A stretch of DNA of 64,000 nt from Phototrophicus methaneseepsis (GTDB taxonomy: Bacteria > Chloroflexota > Anaerolineae > Aggregatilineales > Phototrophicaceae), in the NCBI RefSeq assembly GCF_015500095.1, contig NZ_CP062983.1, positions 3,658,001 to 3,722,000 on the forward strand, read 5' to 3'. Under the pieces are notes generated by a model that did not search any database, was not told the origin of the DNA, and worked only from the letters and a program-made list of their open reading frames with translations. Made by a program: the position numbers and the translations under genes. The stretch's first letter is position 1. Each line of letters begins with the position of its first letter. Positions 50,154-55,526 of this stretch are shown here, one piece after another.

Positions 50154-51638
50154 TTAGGTGGGCAACGTCAGCGGGTTGATGATGTCATAGATGATAATCA
50201 ACACCGCAAGCCCCAGGATGATATACATACAAACACTGATGATCGTCGCCTCAATACGTGGTGATATGGGTTTACCACGCAGCACTTCGATCAAAACAAA
50301 CAGGATACGGCCCCCATCTAAGGGCGGCACGGGGAGCAGGTTCGTAATACCAAGGAAAATGCTCACCATAGCGATAAAGTTGAGGATGAGCTGCGGTGTG
50401 CCATCATCGATACTTTGCTGCAAGAACCTAGCACCAATACGGCTAATACCAACCACGCTCACTGGGCGCGCTTCTTCAGGGCTAATGGTGCCTTCGATCA
50501 AGCTGCGAGGCAGTGAAATGACGGTACCAATGATCTCGCCTGTCTGGTTAATGCCGTAAGAGACAGCTTTATCAAGAGGCTGAGGAATCATAGCTTCTTG
50601 CGCGACGCTATTCACGAAGATAACTCCGTTGTTCGTCGCGTAAACAGCATCAATCACCACACCGATACGGCCCTCCCCTGCTGGCGGGTTCACACGTGGT
50701 GTCAGGGTCACCTGATAAGGTTCCCCATCACGAAGAATATCCAGCAGAATAGTCTGCCCTTCTTTTTCTATAACTCGCGCTTGCATCGTGCTAATAGGGT
50801 CTTCCAGGTCAAATTGAACACCATCTAAAGCTGTGATCAAGTCGCCGGGGCGCAACCGAGCTGCTTCGGCTGGAGAGCCTTCCGCAATCCCGCCGACAAA
50901 AATATAGGGGCTGAGGGTATCCACTCCAGGTGTCAGGGTTACTTCATATTCATCACCCGTCTCTGCTCGACGCAGGCTGAGCGTGATAGGTTCATCCTGG
51001 CTTGCAACCAACTGCTGCAAGAAATCTTGCGTCGTGGGGAACATCTCACCGTTGACGCGCTCAATTACATCACCAATTTCAACACCGGCTTGTGCAAATA
51101 CACTGTTTTGTGGCACCTGGACAAGCTGGGTTCGTGCTCCGACAACTTCAGGCAGGCCAATGAGCGCCACAATGATAAAAAGGACGATTGCGGATGCAAC
51201 ATTCGCAAGAGCACCGGCGGCCATAAAGATGATACGAGACCCTGCGCTAGCATCCTGTAGGGCTACCATATCTTCATCAGCAACCCCGCGTTCCCGCAGT
51301 TGGGAACGCATATCTTCATAACGATGCTTTGGTTTTTCCTCAGCATCGTCTTCATCTGCTTCTGCCACTTCCTCATTGACTGGCCCAGCCATGTCTTCGC
51401 CGAGTGGCATCACATAACCACCAATAGGCAACCAATTTAAGACAATTTCCGTCTCACCCCATCGAAATAACCGGGCAAGGCGCGGCGGCCAGCCAATGCC
51501 AAATTCCAACACGCTGATGCCAGCCATCTTCGCTGCGAGAAAATGCCCTAGCTCGTGGATGATAATTGCCGGAATCAGCACCAGGGCAAACGCCAGCACA
51601 GACATTAGGAACTCGTTTTGGAGCAATCCTTGTAACAT
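50154..51638 (-). CDS. rseP: RseP-type site-2 (M50) zinc metalloprotease
   Basis: 494 aa. The first membrane helix carries the zinc motif IIIHELGHF (His28, Glu29, His32). Two PDZ domains follow (about 195-270 and 280-360), then the third zinc ligand region NLLPVPPLDGG (about 440) and a last helix. A poorly conserved acidic insert (EEVAEADEDDAEEKPKHR) follows the first helix. These proteases cut membrane-spanning anti-sigma factors or signal peptide remnants. No anti-sigma gene is adjacent. GGTGAT lies close before the ATG. Confidence 0.95.
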   Translation of the reverse strand: MLQGLLQNEFLMSVLAFALVLIPAIIIHELGHFLAAKMAGISVLEFGIGWPPRLARLFRWGETEIVLNWLPIGGYVMPLGEDMAGPVNEEVAEADEDDAEEKPKHRYEDMRSQLRERGVADEDMVALQDASAGSRIIFMAAGALANVASAIVLFIIVALIGLPEVVGARTQLVQVPQNSVFAQAGVEIGDVIERVNGEMFPTTQDFLQQLVASQDEPITLSLRRAETGDEYEVTLTPGVDTLSPYIFVGGIAEGSPAEAARLRPGDLITALDGVQFDLEDPISTMQARVIEKEGQTILLDILRDGEPYQVTLTPRVNPPAGEGRIGVVIDAVYATNNGVIFVNSVAQEAMIPQPLDKAVSYGINQTGEIIGTVISLPRSLIEGTISPEEARPVSVVGISRIGARFLQQSIDDGTPQLILNFIAMVSIFLGITNLLPVPPLDGGRILFVLIEVLRGKPISPRIEATIISVCMYIILGLAVLIIIYDIINPLTLPT

Positions 51639-51798: not shown

Positions 51799-52767
51799 CT
51801 AGATCAGGGTTGCCGGGCCACCTGGTGTGGCGACCAGAGTATCCAATATACCAGATAGCGTCCCCAGGCGATTTCTTACCTCATCAACGCTATCCGATGT
51901 ACAGATACAATGTACATTTGGGCCAGCATCCAGGGTATAGCACACCTCAACACCATCAGCCCGCCATTCACGCACGGCTTCCATAATCGCAAGTGTTGGG
52001 GGCTGCCAATAGAAAAGTGGCGGACGGCTCGTCATCATAACAGCGTGCATCAAATTACTGTCTTCTTCTACAACTGTCGCTAATGTGGCGAAATCTTGGT
52101 TGATAATGGCCTGACGACATACATCAAACCTTGCTTGAGCGCCTGCGACACGTGCTTCCTGTAAATCGCTTGTCGAAGCTGTGCGATGCCCCGCCTGAGA
52201 ACCCGTTTTCTTATGTGCTTGGCTCACAACCGCAATCACATCAACAAGGTTCCAATAATCTGGGCTTGCGAAGGATTCAGCGTAGCTGTCTTCATGCGTC
52301 TCTGCAGCAAACCATTCTACAAAGCCACTTGGCACAGAGCGAGAAGCGGACCCGGAGCCAATACGCGCGATCGTCGTTAGCTCCCTTTCAGTTAATTCTT
52401 CCTCGGCTGCTGCAACCGCAGCAACCGTTAACGCCGCAAAGGCTGCCGCTGAGGAAGCGATACCTGCGCCCATCGGGAAGTTGTTTGACGATGACACATG
52501 GGCGTGAATAGCCAAACCAAGACGCCGCCGGATGCGTTCGAGATGGTCGCTGACACGCAGGCGAGCTTGTTCGCTCGCAATTGTCCCGTTAATCTCCAAT
52601 ATATCCTGATCTAGATTCTCATCCCAGGTCACCGAGGTATCTGTATAGACACTCGCCAAATTCATACTAATCGTTGAATTCATAGGTAAGCGCAAAACTT
52701 CGTTGCGGTTCCCCCAATATTTAATGAACGCGATGTTTGGATGCGCACGAGCCGTAGCAGTCTTCAT
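51799..52767 (-). CDS. mvaD: Mevalonate (di)phosphate decarboxylase family, predicted phosphomevalonate decarboxylase
   Basis: 322 aa, GHMP superfamily. It has the family start NIAFIKYWGNRN, the ATP loop SSSNNFPMGAGIASSAAAF (about 93-111), the GSGSASRS active-site Arg region and YTLDAGPNVH with the catalytic Asp. Family members make isopentenyl diphosphate from mevalonate diphosphate, or isopentenyl phosphate from mevalonate phosphate. In Roseiflexus (Chloroflexota) the homologue was shown to be a phosphomevalonate decarboxylase. Because an IPK gene and no phosphomevalonate kinase lie next door, I favour the monophosphate substrate here. The site deviates from the usual CRS-x-x-GG pattern to SRSVPSG. 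The ATG at 52767 is preferred over a GTG at 52773. Confidence 0.93.
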   Translation of the reverse strand: MKTATARAHPNIAFIKYWGNRNEVLRLPMNSTISMNLASVYTDTSVTWDENLDQDILEINGTIASEQARLRVSDHLERIRRRLGLAIHAHVSSSNNFPMGAGIASSAAAFAALTVAAVAAAEEELTERELTTIARIGSGSASRSVPSGFVEWFAAETHEDSYAESFASPDYWNLVDVIAVVSQAHKKTGSQAGHRTASTSDLQEARVAGAQARFDVCRQAIINQDFATLATVVEEDSNLMHAVMMTSRPPLFYWQPPTLAIMEAVREWRADGVEVCYTLDAGPNVHCICTSDSVDEVRNRLGTLSGILDTLVATPGGPATLI

Positions 52768-52839
52768 GGGCACTTGCCTTATTCGTCATAATATCAATCA
52801 TGGTCTGATTGTACCTACCCTGCCGCCAAGCACTAGGGC

Positions 52840-52867
52840 TTGTTGTCACAGTGTGCTGTTTTATAAT
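52840..52867 (+). promoter_or_regulatory. Promoter of the isoprenoid operon
   Basis: TTGTTG, a 16-nt spacer and perfect TATAAT, about 35 nt before the GTG start of the UbiA-type gene. It drives the three plus-strand genes. Confidence 0.6.
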
Positions 52868-52900
52868 CTGCTGCGGGCAGCTAATACTTGGAGCAAACAC

Positions 52901-53806
52901 GTGCAAGCACTCTCTGGTCTCATCCGCACGATGCGACCCAGGCAATGGACCAAAAATATCCTTTTTGTCTTTCCGGCGCTCATATTTGATGGACAACTTT
53001 TTGAGCTAACGCCCTTTTTGCGGGTCACTTTTGCGGCGTTGTTACTCATTCTGGCATCTGGTTCTGTCTATATCATGAATGACCTGGTCGACATTGAAAA
53101 AGACCGGGCACATCCACGCAAAAAGAACCGGCCCCTACCGTCCGGCCAGCTCCCTGTACCGCTGGCAATTGGCACAGCGATCACGCTGCCAATCATTACG
53201 GTCTTGATAGCTTTTGCATGGGAACCGAACCTCGCCGCTGTTCTAATCACTTATCTCATCGTCCAGGTGGCTTACTCCTTCTATCTTAAAAATGTGGTTA
53301 TTCTGGATGTGCTCACAGTCACAGCTGGCTTTATGCTGCGCGTGATTGCGGGCGTGGTGGTGATTGATGTGGCGAACTTTTCGCCCTGGCTTTATGCATG
53401 TTCTGGATTATTAGCCCTGTTCCTGATCGTTGGCAAGCGACGTCAGGAGTATGTGCAATTAGGCGAACATGCACTCAACACACGCCCTATATTTAAAAAT
53501 TACAACCTTCCCTTGCTTGACGATATGCTGCGCATGGTGATGACCTCAACATTCATCACGTATGTGCTCTATACCATTGAAACGGATACCGTCAAGATGT
53601 TAGACGTCAATTTAACCCTGCTGACCGTACCCTTTGTGATTTATGGGCTGTTTTACTATATGTATCTCATTCATGTTAAAGGTGAAGGCGGCGCACCCGA
53701 TGAGGTCCTGTTGACAGATCGCAACCTGCAAATTGATATTGCGCTCTGGGGGCTGACATTTGTATTTTTGATTTATTTACTCCCGGCAATCATTAATCAG
53801 CCATGA
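52901..53806 (+). CDS. UbiA-family prenyltransferase, decaprenyl-phosphate phosphoribosyltransferase-like
   Basis: 301 aa with about eight membrane helices. LIRTMRPRQWTKNILF at the N terminus and the first Asp motif NDLVDIEKDRAHPRKKNRPL are those of the phosphoribosyl-polyprenyl-phosphate synthase branch of UbiA proteins (Rv3806c-like). KRRQEY and a long DRNLQIDIALWGLTF end follow. That branch transfers phosphoribose from PRPP to a polyprenyl phosphate on the cytoplasmic face of the membrane. The frame is open from 52703, but GGAG seven nt before the GTG at 52901 fixes the start. Its stop overlaps the mevalonate kinase start by 4 nt, so it is coupled to the mevalonate genes. Confidence 0.88.
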   Translation: MQALSGLIRTMRPRQWTKNILFVFPALIFDGQLFELTPFLRVTFAALLLILASGSVYIMNDLVDIEKDRAHPRKKNRPLPSGQLPVPLAIGTAITLPIITVLIAFAWEPNLAAVLITYLIVQVAYSFYLKNVVILDVLTVTAGFMLRVIAGVVVIDVANFSPWLYACSGLLALFLIVGKRRQEYVQLGEHALNTRPIFKNYNLPLLDDMLRMVMTSTFITYVLYTIETDTVKMLDVNLTLLTVPFVIYGLFYYMYLIHVKGEGGAPDEVLLTDRNLQIDIALWGLTFVFLIYLLPAIINQP

Positions 53807-54729
53807 CGATATCAGCTTCTGCCCCTGCGAAAATTATCCTCTTTGGTGAGCATGCTGTTGTTTATGGGGAGCCGGCTATCGCCGTCCCTGTCACTGCATT
53901 GCAGGCCACAGCGGATATATCACCATCCGACGATGGGTTTAAGATCATTGCGTATGATCTGGATGATGCCATTATTCGCTACAACACTTATGCTGAAGAC
54001 CAACCCCTTCAACGCGTTCTCACCTTGTTACAAGATGTACATCACTGTGATCTACCGTCGGTAAGCATTGGCGTTCGCTCCCATATTCCTATGGCAAGCG
54101 GCTTAGGTAGCGGTGCTGCTGTGACGACGGCAATTGCACGAGCCGTCACACAGGCAATGGGTAAAACGCTTTCACTGGATGCTCTGAACCGTATTGTCTA
54201 CGAAGTTGAGACAATCCATCATGGCACGCCGAGCGGCATAGATAACACGGTGATTGTGTATGAACAGCCTATCTATTTCGTTCGTGAGCAGCCCATTGAG
54301 CACTTGATGATTGGGCAGCCCTTTACCCTGATTGTCGCTGATACAGGTGAGACAGCGCTCACGCATATCGCTGTCGGGGACGTGCGCAAGTTGGTTACAT
54401 CGGAACCCGAACAGTATCGCCCCATGATTCGTGAAATAGGCAAACTCACAAAATTAGCGCGCCAGCATCTGGAAGCTGGTGAAATCAAGGCGCTTGGCCC
54501 TCTAATGGATACCAATCATGCGTGGTTACAACAGCTCACTGTATCATCCCCAAAATTGGATCAACTGGTGACTGCGGCCAGAGCAGCGGGGGCCTTAGGT
54601 GCAAAACTAAGCGGTGGCGGTCGCGGCGGTAATATGATCGCTCTCGTTCAGCCTGAAGCCGCTGGTGATGTGATGGCAGCTCTGACTTCCAATGGCGCAG
54701 TTTCCGTATTACAGACGATGGTAAATTAG
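53803..54729 (+). CDS. mvk: Mevalonate kinase
   Basis: 308 aa, GHMP kinase. It has the family start SAPAKIILFGEHAVVYG, the ATP loop PMASGLGSGAAV (about 96-107), the ETIHHGTPSGIDN motif with the catalytic Asp, and the C-terminal GAKLSGGGRGGN. It phosphorylates mevalonate to mevalonate 5-phosphate. The ATG overlaps the UbiA-type gene's stop (ATGA), and the IPK start lies 2 nt after its own stop. Confidence 0.95.
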   Translation: MTISASAPAKIILFGEHAVVYGEPAIAVPVTALQATADISPSDDGFKIIAYDLDDAIIRYNTYAEDQPLQRVLTLLQDVHHCDLPSVSIGVRSHIPMASGLGSGAAVTTAIARAVTQAMGKTLSLDALNRIVYEVETIHHGTPSGIDNTVIVYEQPIYFVREQPIEHLMIGQPFTLIVADTGETALTHIAVGDVRKLVTSEPEQYRPMIREIGKLTKLARQHLEAGEIKALGPLMDTNHAWLQQLTVSSPKLDQLVTAARAAGALGAKLSGGGRGGNMIALVQPEAAGDVMAALTSNGAVSVLQTMVN

Positions 54730-54731
54730 CA

Positions 54732-55526
54732 ATGACGAAATCAATCACCCTCATCAAACTTGGCGGATCTCTCATCACAGATAAAAACGTTCAGTCCAGC
54801 TATAAGGCGGATGTCGTCGCTCGTCTGGCCCGCGAGATGAAAGCAGCACAGCAGGCACAGCCCGATCTCAGTCTGGTTATTGGGCACGGCAGCGGCTCTT
54901 TTGGGCATTTTGAAGCAAAGAAGCATAATACAATCGCAGGTGTACACACACCAGAAGAATGGTATGGGTTTACGCGAGTTGCGGTTGCTGCGTCACAACT
55001 AAGCCAATATGTTGCGGAAACATTGTTAGATGCTGAGCTACCCGTTTTCCGGGTACAGCCCAGTGCTTCTGTTGTCTCTGATGAAGGTGTCATCCAGCAA
55101 ATGGCCCTGCATAACATTCGTACAGCGCTCACGATGGGCTTAATCCCCCTGGTTCATGGTGATGTTGCTCTGGATATTACGCTGGGCGGCACAATCACAT
55201 CGACAGAGACTATCTTTGCCTATCTTGCGCGATATCTACCTGTTGATCGCATTTTATTAATTGGCGTGGAATCTGGCGTTTATGATCAAACGGGTTCAAT
55301 CATCCCACACATTACTTCCCATAATCTGGAGCAGCATGAAGCCGCTTTAGGACATTCTGCTGGTGTTGATGTGACCGGGGGTATGTACACTAAAGTCATG
55401 GATATGCTGGCACTTGCTAATGTGCGAGATCAACTCAGTGTGCGCATTATGAGTGGTACCGAACCTGGGTTGCTCACACAAACCTTGCTTAACAAAGCAG
55501 AACCGGGCACCCTGATTACAGGATGA
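54732..55526 (+). CDS. ipk: Isopentenyl phosphate kinase
   Basis: 264 aa, amino acid kinase fold. The start LIKLGGSLITDK and the motif VIGHGSGSFGHF with the diagnostic catalytic His (His59) identify IPK rather than aspartokinase, UMP kinase or glutamate kinase. LIGVESGVYDQ and DVTGGMYTKVMDML complete the nucleotide site. It converts isopentenyl phosphate to isopentenyl diphosphate, the last step of the alternative mevalonate pathway. It ends 2 nt from the convergent ABC permease gene. Confidence 0.95.
   Translation: MTKSITLIKLGGSLITDKNVQSSYKADVVARLAREMKAAQQAQPDLSLVIGHGSGSFGHFEAKKHNTIAGVHTPEEWYGFTRVAVAASQLSQYVAETLLDAELPVFRVQPSASVVSDEGVIQQMALHNIRTALTMGLIPLVHGDVALDITLGGTITSTETIFAYLARYLPVDRILLIGVESGVYDQTGSIIPHITSHNLEQHEAALGHSAGVDVTGGMYTKVMDMLALANVRDQLSVRIMSGTEPGLLTQTLLNKAEPGTLITG

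What the first reader, a model, noticed from the sequence alone, without database searches (positions are those of the whole stretch)
51799..55526. Alternative mevalonate pathway gene cluster in a bacterium
An mvaD-family decarboxylase, mevalonate kinase and isopentenyl phosphate kinase with its diagnostic His are clustered, and phosphomevalonate kinase is absent nearby. The set predicts mevalonate phosphate to isopentenyl phosphate to IPP, a route demonstrated in Roseiflexus and in modified form in archaea but rare among bacteria.
Basis: partly seen in the sequence, partly recalled or inferred. Interest (0 to 1): 0.68.

Follow-up and report, generated by a model that had tools for sequence, protein, structure and literature searches.

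The report
Known alternative mevalonate pathway, Chloroflexota genome
This bacterium makes isoprenoid building blocks by a detour of the mevalonate pathway that removes carbon dioxide before adding the second phosphate; the detour is real here but already established in its phylum, so the locus is ordinary, apart from showing that its relatives use at least two different routes for the same step.

Summary
Window 51799-52773(-) encodes an MvaD-family decarboxylase, 53803-54729(+) a mevalonate kinase and 54732-55526(+) an isopentenyl phosphate kinase (IPK) with its catalytic His. The decarboxylase is 57% identical to the Anaerolinea thermophila mevalonate-5-phosphate decarboxylase (PDB 6n0x) and shares its substrate-pocket residues (Asn, Arg, His where canonical diphosphate enzymes have Lys, Ile, Met). 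I searched the whole one-contig genome. It has no recognisable phosphomevalonate kinase, dxr or ispG. Thiolase, HMG-CoA synthase and HMG-CoA reductase lie 6-10 kb beyond the window, and type-2 IPP isomerase about 8 kb before it. Verdict: new member of a known kind, low interest. The context is more interesting. Most class members without this decarboxylase instead carry the archaeal aconitase-X/UbiD route with IPK, sometimes beside the same neighbour genes (precedent: Ca. Promineifilum breve). A few genomes, one in the window's own order, have lost IPK and carry a basic residue at the specificity position, suggesting reversion to the classical route.

The parts
51799..52773 (-). mevalonate-5-phosphate decarboxylase (MPD; MvaD family). 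ORF from GTG 52773; ATG at 52767 is the likelier start
   Evidence: TIGR01240 258 bits; best PDB match 6n0x, A. thermophila enzyme, 384 bits, 57% identity; pocket residues Asn22, Arg28, His196 of the 324-aa ORF
52931..53806 (+). UbiA-family prenyltransferase, decaprenyl-phosphate phosphoribosyltransferase-like. The open frame begins at 52703, but family similarity starts near residue 69, so GTG 52901 or ATG 52931 is the likelier start
   Evidence: NF008977 234.7 bits (cut-off 234), PF01040; conserved next to MVK and IPK in relatives
53803..54729 (+). mevalonate kinase (MVK)
   Evidence: TIGR00549 257 bits against cut-off 163; best PDB match mevalonate kinase 2x7i
54732..55526 (+). isopentenyl phosphate kinase (IPK)
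   Evidence: NF040647 166 bits against cut-off 120; fosfomycin-kinase models far below their cut-offs; PDB IPK 8u0k and 3k4o; 11 of 11 invariant residues incl. His59
50154..51638 (-). RseP-type site-2 metalloprotease, conserved neighbour downstream of the decarboxylase (context, not pathway)
   Evidence: TIGR00054 207.7 bits against cut-off 147.6; found beside the decarboxylase in 64 of 80 named relatives' loci

Best explanation
The cluster encodes the lower half of the haloarchaea/Chloroflexota-type alternative mevalonate pathway. Mevalonate kinase makes mevalonate 5-phosphate. The MvaD-family enzyme phosphorylates its 3-hydroxyl with ATP and eliminates phosphate and CO2 to give isopentenyl phosphate. 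IPK then phosphorylates this to isopentenyl diphosphate, and a type-2 isomerase elsewhere in the genome makes dimethylallyl diphosphate. Mevalonate comes from a thiolase/HMG-CoA synthase/HMG-CoA reductase operon a few kb beyond the window. This is the genome's only detectable isoprenoid precursor route. Shown: gene content, family membership, pocket residues, absence of the competing genes tested. Inferred: substrate preference and flux.
For: Family matches over cut-off for all three enzymes. Decarboxylase closest in the PDB to the A. thermophila phosphomevalonate decarboxylase 6n0x, 384 bits, against 198 bits for the staphylococcal diphosphate enzyme 2hk2. Asn and His occupy the two sites that differ between 6n0x and the deposited variant 6n0z (Lys, Met), and Arg sits at the position eLife 2013 Table 4 lists as Arg/Thr in Chloroflexi. 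In the genome: no PMK (TIGR01220; GHMP census), no dxr, no ispG, no AcnX; HMGR, archaeal-type HMG-CoA synthase 525 bits and a thiolase in one operon, IDI2 420 bits. In class relatives a basic residue at the Lys21 position goes with missing IPK (4 of 5) while non-basic residues, as here, go with IPK (71 of 73), Fisher p = 5e-5, not corrected for shared ancestry. Gene order conserved in named Phototrophicales/Anaerolineae relatives.
Against: No enzyme assay. The general NCBIfam model would still name the decarboxylase 'diphosphomevalonate decarboxylase', and it scores below the cut-off of the haloarchaeal phosphate-type model NF040704 (205 of 475). At two positions of eLife Table 4 it keeps the MDD-like Ser. 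The His position is not a clean predictor: one relative with Met there (L181) still has IPK. The Pfam P-loop PMK search had no positive control. Genome completeness is 95.7%, so a missed gene is possible.
Confidence: 0.93

Rival explanations
1. The decarboxylase is a classical diphosphomevalonate decarboxylase; an unrecognised kinase (or mevalonate kinase acting twice) makes mevalonate diphosphate, and IPK only salvages isopentenyl phosphate.
For: TIGR01240 model scores over cut-off; IPKs do coexist with classical pathways in plants and animals (eLife 2013).
Against: No PMK by GHMP census or TIGR01220; pocket residues Asn/Arg/His match the phosphate-type enzyme; most relatives with a basic residue at that site lack IPK, and this one has neither feature.
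Confidence: 0.04
2. The decarboxylase is dual-specific, so both branches run.
For: Closely related folds; the 6n0z variant and the Thomas et al. 2019 study cited in PMC9254496 show specificity can be shifted by mutation.
Against: The Roseiflexus enzyme had no measurable activity on the diphosphate (eLife 2013 Table 3); no source of mevalonate diphosphate in this genome.
Confidence: 0.02
3. The AAK-family gene is a fosfomycin kinase rather than an IPK.
For: Fosfomycin kinases FomA/FosC are the nearest relatives of IPK and are hit weakly.
Against: IPK model 166 bits over cut-off 120, against 58 and 49 bits for FosC and FomA with cut-offs 350 and 550; operon with mevalonate kinase conserved across relatives; 137 of 150 class genomes match the IPK model (131 over cut-off) and none has dxr.
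Confidence: 0.01

Closest known systems
Alternative mevalonate pathway of Roseiflexus castenholzii (Dellas et al. 2013, eLife, PMC3857490)
   Same: MPD plus IPK, no PMK, no DXP-pathway genes; Arg at the phosphate-pocket position
   Different: Asn rather than Leu at the Lys21-equivalent site and Ser rather than Ala at the Ser139 site; that paper found IPK only in the class Chloroflexi, this genome belongs to the Anaerolineae/Phototrophicales side of the phylum
Anaerolinea thermophila mevalonate-5-phosphate decarboxylase (PDB 6n0x; Thomas et al. 2019, cited in PMC9254496)
   Same: 57% identity over the whole length, same Asn, Arg and His pocket residues, same broad lineage
   Different: Cys rather than Ser at one pocket position in 6n0x; no functional difference is predicted
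Haloarchaea-type pathway (Haloferax volcanii)
   Same: Same reaction order and enzyme set
   Different: Decarboxylase of another subfamily: NF040704 below its cut-off here
Archaeal mevalonate pathway via trans-anhydromevalonate phosphate, found in the Chloroflexota bacterium Ca. Promineifilum breve (Kanno et al. 2024, cited in PMC13001223)
   Same: Also converts mevalonate phosphate to isopentenyl phosphate and ends with IPK
   Different: Uses aconitase-X dehydratase plus a UbiD-family decarboxylase; aconitase-X is absent from this genome

Membership tests
Alternative (haloarchaea/Chloroflexota-type) mevalonate pathway | MvaD-family decarboxylase with phosphate-type pocket | tested here: met
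   Asn/Arg/His as in 6n0x; 57% identity
Alternative (haloarchaea/Chloroflexota-type) mevalonate pathway | Isopentenyl phosphate kinase with catalytic His | tested here: met
   NF040647 over cut-off; 11 of 11 invariant residues
Alternative (haloarchaea/Chloroflexota-type) mevalonate pathway | No phosphomevalonate kinase in the genome | tested here: met
   GHMP census and TIGR01220; the P-loop type (PF04275) search had no positive control
Alternative (haloarchaea/Chloroflexota-type) mevalonate pathway | Upper pathway (HMG-CoA synthase, HMG-CoA reductase) and IPP isomerase present | tested here: met
Alternative (haloarchaea/Chloroflexota-type) mevalonate pathway | Decarboxylase prefers mevalonate 5-phosphate | not testable with these tools
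   needs an enzyme assay
Haloarchaeal phosphomevalonate decarboxylase subfamily (NF040704) | Score over curated cut-off | tested here: not met
   205 of 475 bits: same reaction predicted, different subfamily
Classical mevalonate pathway (PMK + diphosphomevalonate decarboxylase) | Phosphomevalonate kinase | tested here: not met
Archaeal (AcnX/UbiD) mevalonate pathway | Aconitase-X dehydratase | tested here: not met
   no PF04412 match in G000
MEP/DXP pathway | dxr and ispG | tested here: not met

The most novel reading that the evidence does not exclude
Within one bacterial class the conversion of mevalonate phosphate to IPP has been swapped repeatedly among three routes (phosphate decarboxylase + IPK; archaeal aconitase-X/UbiD + IPK; regained classical PMK + diphosphate decarboxylase), partly in situ beside the same RseP/HEAT-repeat genes. 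In the window's own order one genome (G107) seems to have lost IPK, gained a second mevalonate-kinase-like kinase and changed the decarboxylase pocket (Asn to Arg, His to Asn): a natural reversal of the specificity switch.
Probability: 0.4. Interest if true: 0.5.

Novelty: new member of a known kind. Interest (0 to 1): 0.22.

Why it matters
It confirms that a whole bacterial lineage makes isoprenoids by the detour first shown in Roseiflexus, and that the general family model misnames the decarboxylase as a diphosphate enzyme. Its value is as a reference point: sister lineages with the archaeal route, or with apparent reversions to the classical route, make the question of how these pathways replace one another testable with present-day enzymes.

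Tried and rejected
Fosfomycin kinase instead of IPK: rejected on model scores and operon context. Hidden PMK among GHMP genes: the two remaining GHMP genes are homoserine-kinase-like. Hidden MEP pathway: dxr and ispG absent. Archaeal AcnX route in this genome: absent. P-loop PMK (PF04275): no hit, but the control genomes also gave none, so uninformative. Met at the His position as a marker of IPK loss: not consistent (L181 has Met and IPK; L198 has Met and no IPK match). The key paper on the A. thermophila enzyme (Thomas 2019) and the Ca. Promineifilum paper (Kanno 2024) are not held, so both are cited through papers that cite them. The promoter/terminator scan gave nothing above shuffled expectation.

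Full report
What is there. The window lies in G000:C1:3658001-3722000, a 5.63 Mb genome in one contig, 95.7% complete. The decarboxylase (51799-52773, minus strand) points away from a three-gene operon on the plus strand: a UbiA-family prenyltransferase, mevalonate kinase and IPK. The UbiA stop overlaps the MVK start by 4 bases (ATGA), and MVK and IPK are 2 bases apart. NCBIfam scores are over the curated cut-offs for diphosphomevalonate decarboxylase, mevalonate kinase and isopentenyl phosphate kinase. These are full-length matches and not chance.

Identity of the decarboxylase. The best solved relative is 6n0x, which PMC9254496 names as the Anaerolinea thermophila phosphomevalonate decarboxylase with mevalonate 5-phosphate bound. 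It scores 384 bits and is 57% identical, against 198 bits and 37% for the staphylococcal-type diphosphate enzyme 2hk2. The sibling entry 6n0z differs from 6n0x, in the aligned stretch, at two places, Asn to Lys and His to Met, which are the residues of canonical diphosphate enzymes. The window protein has Asn and His there. It also has Arg where eLife 2013 Table 4 gives Arg/Thr for Chloroflexi and a variable residue (Ile in S. epidermidis) for classical enzymes. The purpose of the 6n0z changes is my inference from the alignment and from the sentence in PMC9254496 that Thomas et al. changed specificity by mutagenesis; the original paper was not available.

Rest of the pathway. IPK has all 11 residues listed as invariant, including the catalytic His. 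HMG-CoA reductase (3730570-3731682) forms an operon with an archaeal-type HMG-CoA synthase and a thiolase just beyond the window (L071 6179-9730). Type-2 IPP isomerase is at 3648836-3649828, about 8 kb before the window. Only four GHMP-family genes exist in the genome: mevalonate kinase, the decarboxylase and two homoserine-kinase-like genes. TIGR01220 phosphomevalonate kinase, dxr, ispG and aconitase-X are not found. The P-loop phosphomevalonate kinase search is uninformative because its controls were also silent.

How common it is. In 150 genomes sampled across the class, dxr occurs in none. A match to the IPK model occurs in 137, of which 131 are over the cut-off and a few of the rest are glutamate-kinase-like. 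The MvaD-family decarboxylase occurs in 79. The best 80 hits of a collection-wide search are all Chloroflexota, mostly Anaerolineae, with a Phototrophicales genome second, and most of the 80 have the Asn/His pair (74 by alignment). The order IPK-MVK-UbiA / decarboxylase-RseP-HEAT repeat protein is conserved in the window's family and close named relatives. The pathway is thus a standing feature of the lineage. It has been described for the phylum since 2013 (PMC3857490) and is listed there in later papers (PMC9254496, PMC11052028).

Support from natural variation. Among 78 class decarboxylases with a readable residue at the Lys21-equivalent site, Lys or Arg occurs in five, and four of those genomes lack IPK; of the other 73, two lack IPK (Fisher p = 5e-5). 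This ignores shared ancestry, and some genomes are incomplete. G013, the exception with Lys and IPK, also carries the aconitase-X route. G107, in the window's own order and 97% complete, has Arg and Asn instead of Asn and His. It has no true IPK, a mevalonate kinase closely related to the window's (L162) and a second, divergent MVK-like kinase (L077), which is what a return to the classical route would look like. In the FastTree tree its decarboxylase does not group with its order mates, so transfer is possible.

A second route in the class. Fifty-eight of the 71 genomes without an MvaD-family decarboxylase carry aconitase-X, against 13 of the 79 with it (three of the 58 have only the fused 600-aa type or pieces of it, which probably has another function). 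In the two clusters scanned with Pfam, UbiD-family decarboxylase, aconitase-X large and small subunits and IPK sit together (L126, L090), and in L126 and L127 IPK is directly followed by RseP and then the HEAT-repeat gene, the same neighbours that flank the decarboxylase here. The archaeal route in a Chloroflexota bacterium was reported in 2024 (Kanno et al., cited in PMC13001223), so this extends a known observation.

Verdict. Observation confirmed, interpretation supported, locus ordinary for its phylum. Not shown here: enzyme specificity and flux.

Noticed in passing
class survey; L126 3652-7457, L090 1379-7558: 58 of 71 class genomes lacking the MvaD-family decarboxylase carry aconitase-X; in the clusters scanned it sits with a UbiD-family decarboxylase, the small AcnX subunit and IPK, the archaeal mevalonate route, sometimes beside the same RseP/HEAT neighbours. 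One species is published (Ca. Promineifilum breve); the breadth may not be.
   Followed up: partly
G107: L076 5959-6966, L077 5536-6558, L162 2853-3926: In the window's own order, a genome without IPK has an extra MVK-like kinase and a decarboxylase with Arg/Asn instead of Asn/His in the pocket: possible reversion to the classical pathway.
   Followed up: partly
L083-L087, L122-L125 (families f6 and f38): Divergent decarboxylases with Leu/Met at the Lys21 site; the two scanned score best with the haloarchaeal and bisphosphomevalonate models though below their cut-offs, resembling the Leu-type pocket reported for Roseiflexus; perhaps a second phosphate-type subfamily in the class.
   Followed up: partly
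window 52901-53806: A decaprenyl-phosphate phosphoribosyltransferase-like UbiA gene leads the MVK-IPK operon and is conserved there; its role in this lineage (a polyprenyl-phosphate user) is unexplained.
   Followed up: no
L181 and L198 (Brevefilum sp.; Anaerolineaceae): Leu/Met and Phe/Met pocket variants; L181's genome has IPK, L198's shows none, so the His position alone does not predict the route.
   Followed up: partly
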